DNA of 64,000 bases, from NCBI RefSeq assembly GCF_014243445.1, contig NZ_JACLQD010000001.1:1-64000 (forward strand), given 5' to 3'. Made by a program: the position numbers and the translations under genes. This DNA comes from Paragemmobacter straminiformis (GTDB taxonomy: Bacteria > Pseudomonadota > Alphaproteobacteria > Rhodobacterales > Rhodobacteraceae). The notes beneath the pieces are model-generated. The model was not told the origin of the DNA. It saw only the letters and a list, made by a program, of their open reading frames with translations, and did not search any database. Every line of letters starts with the position of its first letter. Position 1 is the first letter of the stretch. Positions 1,796 through 58,624 of this stretch are shown piece by piece.

Positions 1796-3352
1796 TCAGA
1801 ACAGCGACCCCTGCCCCCCGTCGCCGCCCGCCTTGCCCTTGCCTGCGGCCAGCCTCACCCGCCCGTCCGCGAATTCGATCTCCAGCACCGCCGCCCGTTC
1901 CGCGGCGGCCTTTCCGGTGACGACCGCGCCATCCCCGCGCACCACGGCAAAGCCGCGCCGCAAGGTCTCGGCATAGCCCAGCGTCACCCGCGTCCGGTCC
2001 AGCGCATCCAGCCGTTGCTCCAGCGCCGCAAAGCGCGCGGCAGGCGCCGCCTCAAGCCGCGCGGCCAGCGGGACCAGCCGGTCCCTGCCCTCGCGGGTCT
2101 TGCGCAGGGCATCCCCGATCACCCGCGCCAGCGACGGCAGCAACCGCGCGCCCAAAGCCTCAAGCCGCGCGGCCCTCCGCTCGGCCCAGCGCTCGCCCGC
2201 AACCCCGAGCCGCTGCGCCGCCTCGGCCAGATCGCGCCGCCGGTGCATGACCAGCCCCAGCAGCAACTCGGGCCGCACCAACCCCGCCCGCGCCTCGAAC
2301 CGCTGCCGCTTGCGCGCCGCGGCCATGCCCAGCCCCGCGCCCAGTCGCCCCGCCCACAGGTCCAGCCGCTGCGCGGCCCCGCCCGTCAGCGCCTCGAGCC
2401 GCGGCAAGGCCCGTCCCAGATCGCGCAACCGCTGCCCGCGCAGCCCCACGCCCGAGACCGCCGCCCGCATCGCCCGCGCGCCCAGCCCGTCGACCGCCGC
2501 CAGCAGTTCCAGCCGCACCGGAACCGCCATCTCCGCCGCCGCCGTGGGGGTGGGCGCGCGGCGGTCGGCGGCATAGTCGATCAGCGTGGTGTCGGTCTCG
2601 TGGCCCACGGCGGAAATCAGCGGAATCCGGCTCGCCGCCGCGGCCCGCACCACGATCTCCTCGTTGAAGCCCCACAGATCCTCGAGCGACCCGCCCCCCC
2701 GCGCCACGATGATCAGATCGGGCCGCGGCACCGGCCCCCCCGCCTCGATGGCATTGAACCCGCGGATCGCCGCCGCCACCTCGGGCGCGCAGGCCTGCCC
2801 CTGCACCGCGACGGGCCAGATCAGCACATGGCGCGGAAAGCGGTCGCGCAGGCGGTGCAGGATATCGCGGATCACCGCACCACTGGGCGAGGTGACCACC
2901 CCGATCACCCCCGGCAGGAACGGCAAGGGCTTTTTGCGCGCGGCATCGAACAGCCCCTCGGCGGCCAGCGCCGCGCGGCGCTTCTCGAGCATCGCCATCA
3001 GGGCACCCGCCCCCGCAGGGGCCACATCCTCGACGATCAGCTGGTATTTCGACTGCCCCGGAAAGGTGGTCATCCGCCCCGTGGCGACAACCTCCATTCC
3101 CTCCTCGGGGCGCACCTGCATTCGGGAAAGCTGCCCCTTCCAGCTGATCGCCGCGATCACGCTGCGGTCGTCCTTGAGGTCGAAATACAGATGCCCCGAG
3201 GCCGGACGCGACACCCGCCCCACCTCGCCCCGCACGCGGACAAGGCCGAACTCGCCCTCGATCACCCGCTTCACCGCGCCGGAGAGTTCCGACACGGTAT
3301 ATTCCGGCTGGTTTCCCTGCGGCGCGGGGGCGGGGTCTTCGAACAGATCCAT
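1796..3352 (-). CDS. xseA: Exodeoxyribonuclease VII large subunit
   Basis: 518 residues. With the small subunit XseB this enzyme degrades single-stranded DNA from both ends into oligonucleotides, and large-subunit excess can be toxic. An N-terminal OB-fold covers about residues 12-110. The catalytic core follows, with GVVTSPSGAVIRDI near 150, RGGGSLEDLWGFNEE near 215 and GHETDTT near 248. After about 330 comes an Ala/Arg/Leu-rich, probably coiled-coil region, and the protein ends GSLF as is typical. The ATG at 3352 (MDLFED) is chosen because the frame upstream runs into the non-coding hairpin region. xseB is not adjacent. The gene is divergent from purD across the hairpin array. Confidence 0.95.
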   Translation of the reverse strand: MDLFEDPAPAPQGNQPEYTVSELSGAVKRVIEGEFGLVRVRGEVGRVSRPASGHLYFDLKDDRSVIAAISWKGQLSRMQVRPEEGMEVVATGRMTTFPGQSKYQLIVEDVAPAGAGALMAMLEKRRAALAAEGLFDAARKKPLPFLPGVIGVVTSPSGAVIRDILHRLRDRFPRHVLIWPVAVQGQACAPEVAAAIRGFNAIEAGGPVPRPDLIIVARGGGSLEDLWGFNEEIVVRAAAASRIPLISAVGHETDTTLIDYAADRRAPTPTAAAEMAVPVRLELLAAVDGLGARAMRAAVSGVGLRGQRLRDLGRALPRLEALTGGAAQRLDLWAGRLGAGLGMAAARKRQRFEARAGLVRPELLLGLVMHRRRDLAEAAQRLGVAGERWAERRAARLEALGARLLPSLARVIGDALRKTREGRDRLVPLAARLEAAPAARFAALEQRLDALDRTRVTLGYAETLRRGFAVVRGDGAVVTGKAAAERAAVLEIEFADGRVRLAAGKGKAGGDGGQGSLF

Positions 3353-3403
3353 TGCGTCGGTCTCCGGCTTGTGCGCGAATGTTAAGTCGCCCGCAGGCAA
3401 AGG

Positions 3404-4133
3404 AAAACCGCAAAGCGGTTTCTGACGCAGAAACCGCGCCGGAATTTGACGCAAATTCCGCGCCCCGCCCCGCGCGCCCCCGCCCGCGACAAGGGCGCAC
3501 CCGATTTCCGCTGCCACCCGATTTCCGCGTCAGAAATCGTCGCGAAATCCGCGTCAGATTTCGCCCCCGCCACCCGCCCCGCGCCCCCCGGCCCGCGAAA
3601 AATGCGCAGCCGATTTCCACAGCCCACCCGATTTCTACGTCAGAAATCGTCGCGAAATCCGCGCCAGATTTCGCCCCCGCCGCCCGCCCCGCGCCCCCCG
3701 GCCCGCGACAAAGGCGCAGCCGATTTCCGCAGCCCACCCGATTTCTGCGCCAGAAACCGTCGCGAAATCCGCGTCAGACTTCGCCCCCGCCGCCCGCCCC
3801 GCGCCCCCCGCCCCGCGACAAGGGCGCAGCCGATTTCCGCAGCCCACCCGATTTCTGCGCCAGAAACCGTCGCGAAATCTGCGCCAGATTTCGCCCCCGC
3901 CGCCCGCCCCGCGCCCCCCGCCCCGCGACAAGGGCGCACCCGATTTCCACAGCGCAGCCGATTTCTGCGTCAGAAATCGTCGCGAAATCTGCGCCAGATT
4001 TCGCCCGCCCCGCCCGCCCCGCGCCCCCCGGCCCGCGACAAGGGCGCACCCGATTTCCGCAGCCCGCCCGATTTCTGCGTCAGAAATCGTCGCGAAATCT
4101 GCGCCAGATTTCGCCCCCGCCGCCCGCCCCGCG
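3404..4133. repeat. Tandem array of a 110-bp unit, each with two perfect hairpins
   Basis: The word CAGAAATCGT, or CAGAAACCGT, recurs at 3531, 3641, 3751, 3861, 3971 and 4081, an exact 110-base period. A degenerate 103-base copy starts near 3428. Each unit carries two adjacent perfect stem-loops, seen best in the last unit: CGATTTCTG/CAGAAATCG around CGT (4069-4089) and GCGAAATCT/AGATTTCGC around GCGCC (4092-4114). The rest of the unit is a C-rich spacer. Two extra hairpins precede the array: AAACCGC/GCGGTTT (3405-3421) and CGGAATTTG/CAAATTCCG (3440-3460). The period is not a multiple of three and apparent proteins change frame between units, so it is not coding. It sits between the divergent xseA and purD starts and ends just before the purD -35 box. 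Confidence 0.9.
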
Positions 4134-4134
4134 C

Positions 4135-4163
4135 TTGCACCGATGCCCCGCCCCCCCTATAGC
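4135..4163 (+). promoter_or_regulatory. Predicted housekeeping promoter of purD
   Basis: TTGCAC at 4135-4140 and TATAGC at 4158-4163 with 17-base spacing, about 30 bases before the purD ATG. The -35 box follows directly on the last hairpin-array unit. Confidence 0.5.
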
Positions 4164-4192
4164 CCACCCAACCAGCAAGGGGGGCAGCGCCC

Positions 4193-5455
4193 ATGAACAT
4201 CCTCATCCTCGGCAGCGGCGGGCGCGAACACGCCCTTGCATGGGCCGTCAAACAGAACCCCAAGACCGACCGCCTCATCGTCGCCCCCGGCAATGCGGGC
4301 ATCGCCCAGCTTGCCGAATGCGCCGAGATCGACATCCTTTCGGGCGCGACCGTGGTCACCTTCTGCGAAGAGAACGCCATCGACTTCGTGATCGTCGGCC
4401 CCGAAGCCCCCCTTGCCGCAGGCGTGGCCGATGCCACCCGCGCCGCTGGCATCCTGACCTTCGGACCTTCGGCCGAGGCCGCAAAGCTCGAAGCCTCAAA
4501 ATCCTTCACCAAGGAAATCTGCGACGCCTGCGCCGCCCCGACCGCCGCCTATGCCCGCTTCACCGCCCCCGCCCCCGCCCGCGCCTATGTGCAGGCGCAG
4601 GGCGCGCCCATCGTGGTGAAAGCCGACGGCCTTGCCGCGGGCAAGGGCGTGATCGTGGCAATGACGATCGACGAGGCGCTTGCCGCCATCGACGACATGT
4701 TCGGCGGCGAATTCGGCGCCGCAGGGGCCGAAGTGGTGATCGAGGAATTCATGACGGGCGAGGAAGCCTCGTTCTTCATCCTCACCGACGGCACCCATGC
4801 CCTGCCCATCGGCACGGCGCAGGACCACAAGCGCGTGGGCGACGGCGACACGGGGCCGAACACCGGCGGCATGGGCGCCTATTCCCCCGCCCCCGTCCTG
4901 TCGGATGCCATCGCCACACGCGCCATGCAGGAAATCGTCCTGCCCACCATCCGCGAAATGGCCCGCCGTGGCACGCCCTACCAAGGCGTCCTCTACGCCG
5001 GATTGATGATCGAGAACGGACAAGGCCGCCTTGTCGAATACAACGCCCGCTTCGGCGACCCCGAATGCCAGGTGCTGATGATGCGCCTCGGCGCGCAGGC
5101 CCTCGACCTGCTGCTCGCCTGCGCCGAAGGCCGGCTGGACGAGGCGCAGGTGACCTGGGCCGAAGACCACGCCCTGACCGTTGTCATGGCCGCGCGCGGC
5201 TACCCCGCCGCCTATGTCAAGGGAACCGAGATCAGGGGGCTCGACGCCCTGCCCGAAACCTCGTCGCAGATGGTGTTCCACGCCGGAACCCGCGCCGAAG
5301 GCGGCAAGACCCTCGCCACGGGGGGCCGCGTCCTCAACGTCACCGCCCGAGGCGCCACATTGGCCGAGGCGCAGGCCCGCGCCTATGCGATGGTCGATGC
5401 CATCGACTGGCCCGAAGGCTTCTGCCGCCGCGACATCGGCTGGCGCGCGCTCTGA
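4193..5455 (+). CDS. purD: Phosphoribosylamine--glycine ligase (GARS)
   Basis: 420 residues, normal length. Joins glycine to 5-phosphoribosylamine using ATP, the second step of de novo purine synthesis in the cytoplasm. The N-terminal domain begins MNILILGSGGREHALAW. The ATP-grasp domain spans about 100-290 with KADGLAAGKGV near 142 and GGMGAYSPAPV near 223; the metal-binding NARFGDPE lies near 283. AGGGGGGCAGCGCCC precedes the ATG but no strong Shine-Dalgarno is seen. The following glycosyltransferase gene starts within a few bases of its stop. Confidence 0.97.
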   Translation: MNILILGSGGREHALAWAVKQNPKTDRLIVAPGNAGIAQLAECAEIDILSGATVVTFCEENAIDFVIVGPEAPLAAGVADATRAAGILTFGPSAEAAKLEASKSFTKEICDACAAPTAAYARFTAPAPARAYVQAQGAPIVVKADGLAAGKGVIVAMTIDEALAAIDDMFGGEFGAAGAEVVIEEFMTGEEASFFILTDGTHALPIGTAQDHKRVGDGDTGPNTGGMGAYSPAPVLSDAIATRAMQEIVLPTIREMARRGTPYQGVLYAGLMIENGQGRLVEYNARFGDPECQVLMMRLGAQALDLLLACAEGRLDEAQVTWAEDHALTVVMAARGYPAAYVKGTEIRGLDALPETSSQMVFHAGTRAEGGKTLATGGRVLNVTARGATLAEAQARAYAMVDAIDWPEGFCRRDIGWRAL

Positions 5456-10877: not shown

Positions 10878-11169
10878 CCCCGCCACCCCGCGCAGGTGCC
10901 ACGCATCGGGGCAAGGCGCCCCCGACCGACCAAAGGCTCCCGCCCTTCCCCTTGCAGACATCGGGGCGCATCTCGCTTCGGGAATCGGGGCGGCTAGCAC
11001 AGCCGAAACAGCCGTCAGACCACCGTTGCACCCCGACCCGCCCGCACAGCCACCCGCCGCTGGCAGGCACGGCGGCGGCCGCAAAACGCGGTCGGGACGA
11101 ACCGCTGTCAGGGCGGGCCGCTGTCAGGGCGGGCCGCCCCGATTTTTCGCAGAAAAATCGTGCCCCGCC
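10878..11169. other. Intergenic region between convergent ptsP and uvrD-type gene
   Basis: No supported gene. It contains an exact tandem duplication of a 16-base unit, CTGTCAGGGCGGGCCG, at 11105-11120 and 11121-11136, next to an AT-rich hairpin. Confidence 0.5.
11140..11160 (-). terminator. AT-rich perfect hairpin after the uvrD-type gene
   Basis: Arms CGATTTTTC and GAAAAATCG around GCA, nine bases past the helicase stop on the minus strand. Likely a terminator. The same hairpin, within one base, recurs at 58606-58624. Confidence 0.6.
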
Positions 11170-18159: not shown

Positions 18160-18234
18160 GCGGGCGTAGCTCAGGGGTAGAGCATAACCTTGCCAAGGTT
18201 AGGGTCGTGAGTTCGAATCTCATCGCCCGCTCCA
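18160..18234 (+). tRNA. tRNA-Gly (GCC), copy 1
   Basis: 75 bases with encoded CCA. Acceptor GCGGGCG pairs with CGCCCGC, the anticodon loop reads CTTGCCAAG with GCC at the centre, and the T-loop is GTTCGAATC. Identical to the copy at 19173. A TTATACAT word at 18133-18140 is a possible -10. Confidence 0.97.
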
Positions 18235-19172: not shown

Positions 19173-19247
19173 GCGGGCGTAGCTCAGGGGTAGAGCATAA
19201 CCTTGCCAAGGTTAGGGTCGTGAGTTCGAATCTCATCGCCCGCTCCA
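19173..19247 (+). tRNA. tRNA-Gly (GCC), copy 2
   Basis: Identical over all 75 bases to the copy at 18160, same orientation, about 1 kb apart. CCA is encoded. Confidence 0.97.
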
Positions 19248-58605: not shown

Positions 58606-58624
58606 GATTTTTCGCAGAAAAATC
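58606..58624 (-). terminator. AT-rich perfect hairpin after the Gfo/Idh/MocA gene
   Basis: Arms GATTTTTC and GAAAAATC around GCA, four bases beyond the stop on the minus strand. Matches 11140-11160. Confidence 0.6.

What the first reader, a model, noticed from the sequence alone, without database searches (positions are those of the whole stretch)
3404..4133. Seven-unit tandem array of a 110-bp sequence with two perfect hairpins per unit between xseA and purD
Exact 110-base spacing of CAGAAATCGT-type words at six positions, a seventh degenerate unit, and two different perfect stems in every unit, about 14 hairpins in 0.7 kb. Differences between units fall mainly outside the stems or change loop/arm bases together (CAGAAACCGT pairs with a less perfect partner in units 3 and 4). 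The stems belong to the same style of AT-rich hairpin found singly elsewhere in the window, as if one intergenic hairpin pair had been amplified. Position next to divergent promoters suggests an effect on supercoiling, transcription or a DNA-binding protein. Copy number could vary between strains.
Basis: seen in the sequence. Interest (0 to 1): 0.75.

Follow-up and report, generated by a model that had tools for sequence, protein, structure and literature searches.

The report
Four-hairpin repeat amplified between xseA/purD
The array is a locally multiplied half of a four-hairpin DNA repeat found at many gene ends in this bacterial genus; its hairpins keep their shape while their letters change, which makes it a good test case for what such repeats do.

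Summary
The array is real but better described differently: one left half plus six tandem right halves (110-bp period) of a dispersed four-hairpin element, not seven copies of one unit. The standard element has two ~10-bp hairpins with loop ACG, a short spacer, then two with loop CGT ("<< >>"), centres 24 nt apart within each half. I count 31 loci in this genome; all 19 genomes of the genus gave matches, 39 genomes of other families none. At xseA-purD, 9 of 18 sister genomes carry one element.

Between orthologous sites stem pairs change on both sides (22) far more than on one (4). Outside arrays G-U is not commoner than A-C (5 vs 10), which favours a DNA-level palindrome; but the uncompensated changes in this very array are all G-U on the minus strand. 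Most elements abut stop codons; xseA-purD (divergent) is an exception. Neighbouring or nested stems are never identical in the own genome (0 seen, 13.2 expected).

Closest known kind: REP/BIME repeats, without RAYT and without GTAG or CGTC end tags. Best reading: a REP-like gene-boundary element working as DNA hairpins, its right half amplified here. Function is inferred.

The parts
3413..3464 (+). left half-element: hairpins H1 (3415-3437) and H2 (3440-3460), loops ACG
   Evidence: R1 covariance-model match 75.9 bits; perfect arms
3515..3566 (-). right half-element, copy 1 (two non-Watson-Crick pairs)
   Evidence: R1 60.1 bits
3625..3676 (-). right half-element, copy 2 (two non-Watson-Crick pairs)
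   Evidence: R1 58.4 bits
3735..3786 (-). right half-element, copy 3 (three non-Watson-Crick pairs)
   Evidence: R1 57.5 bits
3845..3896 (-). right half-element, copy 4 (one non-Watson-Crick pair)
   Evidence: R1 65.4 bits
3955..4006 (-). right half-element, copy 5, all pairs intact
   Evidence: R1 69.9 bits
4065..4116 (-). right half-element, copy 6 (outermost, next to purD), all pairs intact
   Evidence: R1 70.8 bits, best of the six
3464..4134 (.). tandem array, period 110, 6.1 copies; short GC-rich direct repeat (CCCGCCCCGCGC) near both ends
   Evidence: TRF; ends printed
1796..3352 (-). xseA, exodeoxyribonuclease VII large subunit
   Evidence: TIGR00237, E 2.8e-119
4135..4163 (+). possible purD promoter TTGCAC-N17-TATAGC, downstream of the array
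   Evidence: similar motif ahead of purD in relatives, read by eye; the strict sigma-70 scan found none
4193..5455 (+). purD, phosphoribosylamine-glycine ligase
   Evidence: TIGR00877, E 1.8e-158

Best explanation
It is a REP/BIME-like dispersed repeat: a four-hairpin element '<< >>' that sits at gene boundaries, mostly right after stop codons. Shown: anatomy, dispersal, compensatory stem change at orthologous sites, avoidance of identical neighbouring stems, and a single-copy state at this site in sister genomes. Inferred: each ~23-nt palindrome works as a separate DNA hairpin (cruciform or single-strand hairpin) that some host factor reads by its loop and 24-nt spacing, so that the element acts as a topological or transcriptional boundary between genes. 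At xseA-purD the right half with its spacer was then multiplied six-fold, probably by slippage or recombination between short GC-rich direct repeats; inner copies may be decaying.
For: 31 own-genome loci. 19 of 19 genus genomes matched. Of 77 loci analysed 73 show both halves, each in << >> order. Stems: 99.2% paired, 14 of 19 pairs with two-sided change, 0 of 500 shuffles as high in covariation (a set picked as palindromes); 98.3% and 16 of 19 in 89 model matches. Between sites with shared flanks in this genome and G006, 22 pair positions changed on both sides, 4 on one, 199 not at all (25 of 28 hairpins compared). Outside arrays G-U 1 vs A-C 8 in 68 half-elements, and 4 vs 2 in a further 79: no wobble excess. 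14 of 31 loci lie between convergent genes (background 25 of 167 gaps of 100 bp or more); 23 of 31 have a stop codon within 11 nt of an outer hairpin (crude gene caller). Identical neighbouring or nested stems 0, expected 13.2 (29 own elements). Single element at xseA-purD in 9 of 18 sisters. Three other own-genome loci with one half repeated.
Against: No experiment and no binding factor. In the finding's array all 8 non-Watson-Crick cells (5 changed columns) are G-U on the minus strand and none A-C; over all arrays G-U 11 vs A-C 2. That is what RNA of that strand would tolerate, although the cells share ancestry. RNA of both strands could also give the lack of G-U excess elsewhere. 17 of 31 loci are not between convergent genes (15 codirectional, 2 divergent, window row corrected by hand). 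The xseA-purD slot holds an unrelated palindromic repeat in five sisters and nothing recognised in four. Folded as RNA, and in one of two whole elements as DNA, distant hairpins pair with each other instead of staying separate. 'Decay of inner copies' rests on two arrays where the outermost copy scores best; in the third it is second.
Confidence: 0.45

Rival explanations
1. RNA 3'-end element: tandem hairpins after the stop codons of both genes act as a bidirectional terminator or protect mRNA 3' ends from exonucleases.
For: 23 of 31 loci within 11 nt of a stop codon, 14 of 31 between convergent genes. RNA folds are stable, z -4.5 to -7.9 for the five sequences folded. In the finding's array the uncompensated changes are all G-U on one strand. 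In another genus one such hairpin has a T-run behind it (L181).
Against: Outside arrays G-U 5 vs A-C 10. T-rich tails beyond the outer hairpins at 6 of 62 ends (the window's left end is one of the six). At xseA-purD the genes are divergent and the possible purD promoter lies downstream of the array. Stems are AT-rich in a 68% GC window.
Confidence: 0.31
2. Selfish or neutral REP-like repeat: spread in the past by an unknown transposase, tolerated at gene ends; perfect stems kept by palindrome-correcting template switching rather than by selection.
For: Patchy distribution: 23 of 198 family genomes with R1, two of them of the own genus; 0 of 39 genomes of other families with R2. Location and tandem growth are also reported for REPs (PMC3733652).
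Against: No RAYT over the cut-off in 19 genus genomes. The 29 complete own elements all have different stem combinations, so no recent copies. Palindrome correction alone does not explain the fixed loop, the 24-nt spacing, or the avoidance of identical neighbours.
Confidence: 0.2
3. Operator array: the six pairs bind a regulator of xseA and purD.
For: Location between two divergent genes; palindromes.
Against: The same element occurs at 30 other own loci, mostly at 3' ends, with different stem sequences; the 18 sisters have one or none at this site.
Confidence: 0.02
4. Assembly artefact.
For: Repeats are a usual source of error; copy number was not verified by reads.
Against: Units differ from each other (73-105 of 110 identical), contig of 1.24 Mb, three other own loci with one half repeated at other periods.
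Confidence: 0.01

Closest known systems
CGTC-tagged REPs of Alphaproteobacteria (Di Nocera et al. 2013, PMC3733652)
   Same: Short palindromes, paired in opposite orientation, close to 3' ends of convergent and codirectional genes, no dedicated transposase, dimer partners in several families with different stems.
   Different: There CGTC is unpaired at one end, stems are 8-9 bp with A/T pairs first, loops 4-5, clusters rare, and frequent G-T pairs are cited. Here CGT/ACG is the hairpin loop, stems are 9-10 bp starting with G/C, a half has two tandem hairpins and the element four, G-U is rare outside arrays, and half-arrays occur.
GTAG REPs / REPINs / BIMEs with RAYT transposases
   Same: Dispersed, intergenic, inverted pairs, tandem amplification (BIME-2-like, recalled).
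   Different: No GTAG tag, no RAYT over the cut-off in the genus, stems vary by compensatory change.
Tandem or bidirectional hairpin terminators between convergent genes (recalled)
   Same: Two hairpins in a row at 3' ends, symmetric for both genes.
   Different: T-tract mostly absent (6 of 62 ends), conserved loop and spacing, AT-rich stems, also between divergent genes.

Membership tests
REP/BIME-like dispersed palindromic repeat (broad sense) | 20-60 nt palindromes, many intergenic copies, often in inverted pairs | tested here: met
   31 own loci; 73 of 77 analysed loci complete, each << >>
REP/BIME-like dispersed palindromic repeat (broad sense) | preference for 3' ends, convergent and codirectional gaps | tested here: met
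   23 of 31 next to a stop codon; 14 convergent, 15 codirectional, 2 divergent (crude caller, window row corrected by hand)
GTAG REP (REPIN) | cognate RAYT transposase (PF01797) in the genome | tested here: not met
   0 of 19 genus genomes over the cut-off; 1 weak match in G008; 5 of 14 control genomes ring, E. coli among them
GTAG REP (REPIN) | unpaired GTAG at one end | tested here: not met
   stem flanks vary, no GTAG in the consensus
CGTC REP | unpaired CGTC at one end, stem 8-9 bp with A/T first, loop 4-5 | tested here: not met
   CGT/ACG is the loop, stems start G/C, loop mostly 3
Intrinsic terminator | hairpin followed by T-tract | tested here: not met
   5 T in 8 at 6 of 62 outer ends, the window's left end among them; one terminator-like site in 3300-4260, in a spacer, shuffles mean 1.8
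BIME as gyrase/IHF site | binding of gyrase or IHF | not testable with these tools
   no binding data
Known structured RNA family | match to an Rfam model | tested here: not met
   none at E<=1 for 3000-4600; none at gathering score in five loci

The most novel reading that the evidence does not exclude
A DNA hairpin quartet with a stem code: four palindromes of fixed loop, direction and spacing in which stems may change as long as each stays paired, neighbours and nested partners avoid matching, and alternate hairpins (H1/H3, H2/H4) tend to be reverse complements of each other. This A-B-A-B order exceeds what avoidance alone gives in the pooled 73 elements (29 seen, 17-19.5 expected, P about 0.001-0.002), though not clearly in the 29 own elements alone (11 seen, 8.2-8.6 expected, P 0.12-0.14). 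It could mark a new class of structure-read DNA site, for example a supercoil-driven switch between two alternative cruciforms at gene boundaries.
Probability: 0.15. Interest if true: 0.8.

Novelty: new variant of a known kind. Interest (0 to 1): 0.55.

Why it matters
Whether REP-type repeats act as DNA, as RNA or as parasites is unsettled in the survey I read (PMC3733652). Here positions can be kept between species while stem letters are replaced pairwise, with a rule on which stems may be neighbours. That makes the DNA-versus-RNA question testable by mutating one arm, then both arms, of a single chromosomal element. The array also shows how one half of such an element grows in tandem, with the single-copy state preserved in sister genomes.

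Tried and rejected
Rejected: (1) coding array - 110 is not a multiple of 3, relatives have a single element there; (2) REP moved by RAYT; (3) Rfam family; (4) seven equal units; (5) simple inverted repeat of one half - nested order A-B-B-A is avoided; (6) toxicity of long palindromes alone as the reason for stem diversity - H1=H4 has the longer gap yet is rarer than expected, H1=H3 is not; (7) whole-hairpin swapping - orthologous hairpins differ by 0.88 pairs on average (1.8 among those that changed), random pairs by 2.3, so stepwise change is likelier, not proven. Led nowhere: paper searches for this element; only one search gave the REP survey. That I found no description in print rests on these nine searches of open-access text.

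Rows dropped: one search used 86 of the 89 rows of A2 and the top 79 of 131 rows of A5 (the rest reverse-strand duplicates or weaker; L199:392-443 may be a decayed extra right half). One search left out 3 of 28 orthologous hairpins (register unclear or degenerate). Orthologous elements recur among the 73, so the own-genome tests (29 elements) are the independent ones. One search's gene caller is crude: it missed xseA, and I corrected that row by hand. The genome search scored at most 150 candidates per genome, fewer in samples over 40 genomes, so copy counts are lower bounds.

Full report
What is there. The gap between xseA (1796-3352, minus) and purD (4193-5455, plus) is 840 bp. TRF reports period 110, 6.1 copies, 3464-4134. 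Scanning for palindromes showed that the repeated unit is not the basic object. In 404 kb of contiguous own-genome sequence (window included), three further own stretches and twenty stretches of a sister genome (G006), the recurring object is a set of four hairpins: two with loop ACG, centres 24 nt apart, then two with loop CGT, again 24 nt apart. In the window, 3413-3464 is the left half and the array is six copies of the right half.

Family. A covariance model (R1) from 25 half-elements gave 104 matches in the own genome, many of them one site on both strands, which I merged into 31 loci. Two of the 31 (L155, L161) showed one half only at the score used; 29 are complete. R1 matched 19 of 19 genus genomes, 2 to 135 matches each, and 23 of 198 family genomes, two of them of the own genus. 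A broader model (R2) matched 7 of 41 family genomes at 1e-5, own included. In a class-wide sample of 41 it matched only the own genome; one other family member and 39 genomes of other families had no match. The family is Rhodobacteraceae by the record titles. In other genera the same geometry occurs with other stems, some GC-rich, plus two-hairpin forms. Rfam has nothing in what I gave it. The gap between the two 52-nt halves is 9-16 nt in 50 of 73 complete elements.

Half-arrays. Four own loci carry one half more than once: this one (1 left + 6 right, period 110), C8:1066369 (1 + 6, period 83), C12:391203 (4 left + 1 right, period 102) and C12:343921 (2 left + 1 right). So either half can grow. 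In a set from G005, G007 and G011, 37 of 38 complete elements are 1 + 1 and one is 2 + 1. In both six-copy arrays the outermost copy has the best model score (70.8 and 71.6 bits); in the four-copy array it is second (63.8 against 64.0).

The xseA-purD site in relatives. I looked at the 18 other genus genomes. Nine carry one element (L131, L132, L133, L135, L136, L137, L138, L140, L141). Nine do not (L134, L139, L142-L148; L147 and L148 lie near contig ends). In five of these (L142-L145, L148) a different dispersed palindromic repeat lies there, with 11-27 matches per genome in G009, G011, G012, G015 and G016 and 0-6 in the other genus genomes. Pseudotabrizicola formosa (L012) and P. algicola (L015) have a short gap without it. 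Spacers in the single elements differ more than the hairpins.

Structure, not sequence, is kept. In 25 half-elements 99.2% of pair cells are standard pairs, 14 of 19 pairs show two-sided change, and no one-sided change to a standard pair was counted; 0 of 500 shuffles reached the covariation score. That set was picked as palindromes, so I repeated it on model matches: 98.3%, 16 of 19. Seven own loci share flanking sequence on both sides with one of the 24 G006 stretches compared; in one (L150) the left flank lies about 2.4 kb away. At these, 25 of 28 hairpins were compared: 22 pair positions changed on both sides, 4 on one, 199 unchanged. All four xseA-purD hairpins were unchanged in that comparison, but other sisters show paired changes there, and some unpaired ones.

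G-U against A-C. G-U is tolerated in RNA stems, A-C is not; in DNA both are mismatches. Over 86 half-elements G-U is 12, A-C 10, other 19 of 1633 cells. Split: 68 outside arrays have G-U 1, A-C 8; 18 in arrays have G-U 11, A-C 2. In the second set (79 rows, counted as outside arrays) G-U 4, A-C 2. So single elements show no G-U preference, which favours DNA. The finding's array goes the other way: its 8 cells, from five changed columns, are all G-U on the minus strand and uncompensated. Those copies are related and few, but the result is against my reading and for the RNA rival.

Stem rule. Writing the hairpins H1-H4, stems (7-nt cores) of neighbours or nested partners never coincide in the 29 complete own elements: 0 seen, 13.2 expected under permutation. 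In G005, G007 and G011 (38 elements): H1=H2 0, H3=H4 0, H2=H3 2 (7.7 expected), H1=H4 2 (4.6 expected, P 0.12). Opposite stems coincide more than by permutation: 11 against 5.6 in the own set, P 0.006; in the second set H1=H3 7 (3.2 expected, P 0.016) and H2=H4 5 (3.4 expected, P 0.23). Part of this follows from avoidance. With avoidance built in, the 73 pooled elements give 17-19.5 expected against 29 (P about 0.001-0.002), the 29 own ones 8.2-8.6 against 11 (P 0.12-0.14). Avoidance is solid; the A-B-A-B excess is only suggestive because orthologues recur in the pool. Di Nocera et al. note an unexplained heterodimer preference in REPs and suggest protection from hairpin-cleaving enzymes (PMC3733652, section 14).

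Position. With a crude gene caller, 14 of 31 own loci lie between convergent genes, 15 between codirectional and 2 between divergent ones (window row corrected by hand); gaps of 100 bp or more in the sampled own genome are 25 convergent, 109 codirectional, 33 divergent. In 23 of 31 an adjacent gene's stop codon lies within 11 nt of an outer hairpin. T-rich tails are present at 6 of 62 outer ends, one of them the window's left end. The possible purD promoter (4135-4163) is downstream of the array; that reading is by eye, and the strict scan found none.

Folding. As DNA, G006's xseA-purD copy folds into four separate hairpins on both strands (z -7.5 and -6.5). As RNA, one strand pairs H1 with H3 and the other H1 with H4 (z -5.7 and -4.7). 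In L164, where H1 and H3 share stems, DNA and RNA predictions both pair H1 with H3.

Compared with the known. I read the abstract, sections 6, 14, 15, part 1 of the discussion and search passages of PMC3733652; other papers I saw as listings only. The element shares with REPs its location and inverted pairing; it fails the GTAG, CGTC and RAYT criteria tested. I call it REP/BIME-like, a new variant, not a member of either named super-family. The 29 complete own elements all have different stem combinations, so there is no trace of recent copying; how the family spread is open.

Mechanism. Shown: maintained palindromes, fixed loop and spacing, gene-end preference, tandem growth of halves. Inferred: hairpins act in DNA. 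Not shown: any effect on transcription, supercoiling or binding.

Noticed in passing
window 11140-11160 and 58606-58624; L110:939, L110:1197, L111:708, L111:751, L126:13179, L128:12499: A second family of AT-rich hairpins with loop GCA or TGC (TTTTTC-GCA-GAAAAA type), single or in inverted pairs; distinct from the element of this finding.
   Followed up: partly
L142-L145, L148 upstream of purD: An unrelated GC-rich palindromic repeat (about 71 bp, 11-27 matches per genome) fills the xseA-purD gap in five sister genomes; four of them have 24-44 R1 matches, G011 has 95.
   Followed up: partly
window 18160-18234 and 19173-19247: Two tRNA-Gly(gcc) genes 1013 bp apart; their arms appear as identical hairpins in the palindrome scan.
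   Followed up: no
L181 near 4000-4050: In genome G177 a hairpin with the same GCGTC loop has a 12-bp stem flanked by an A-run and a T-run, like a bidirectional intrinsic terminator; a possible link between the family and terminators.
   Followed up: no
window 3500-4110, inside each 110-bp unit: Each unit's spacer carries an extra CCGATTTCC(G/A)C, a partial copy of the first arm of the next hairpin, about 20 bp before it; perhaps a slippage scar.
   Followed up: no
L154 near 3970-4020 and L165 near 3970-4020: Between the halves of two own elements lies what looks like a decayed extra half (read by eye; for L154 a weak match at 312171-312222), so repeated halves may be commoner than the four loci counted.
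   Followed up: no
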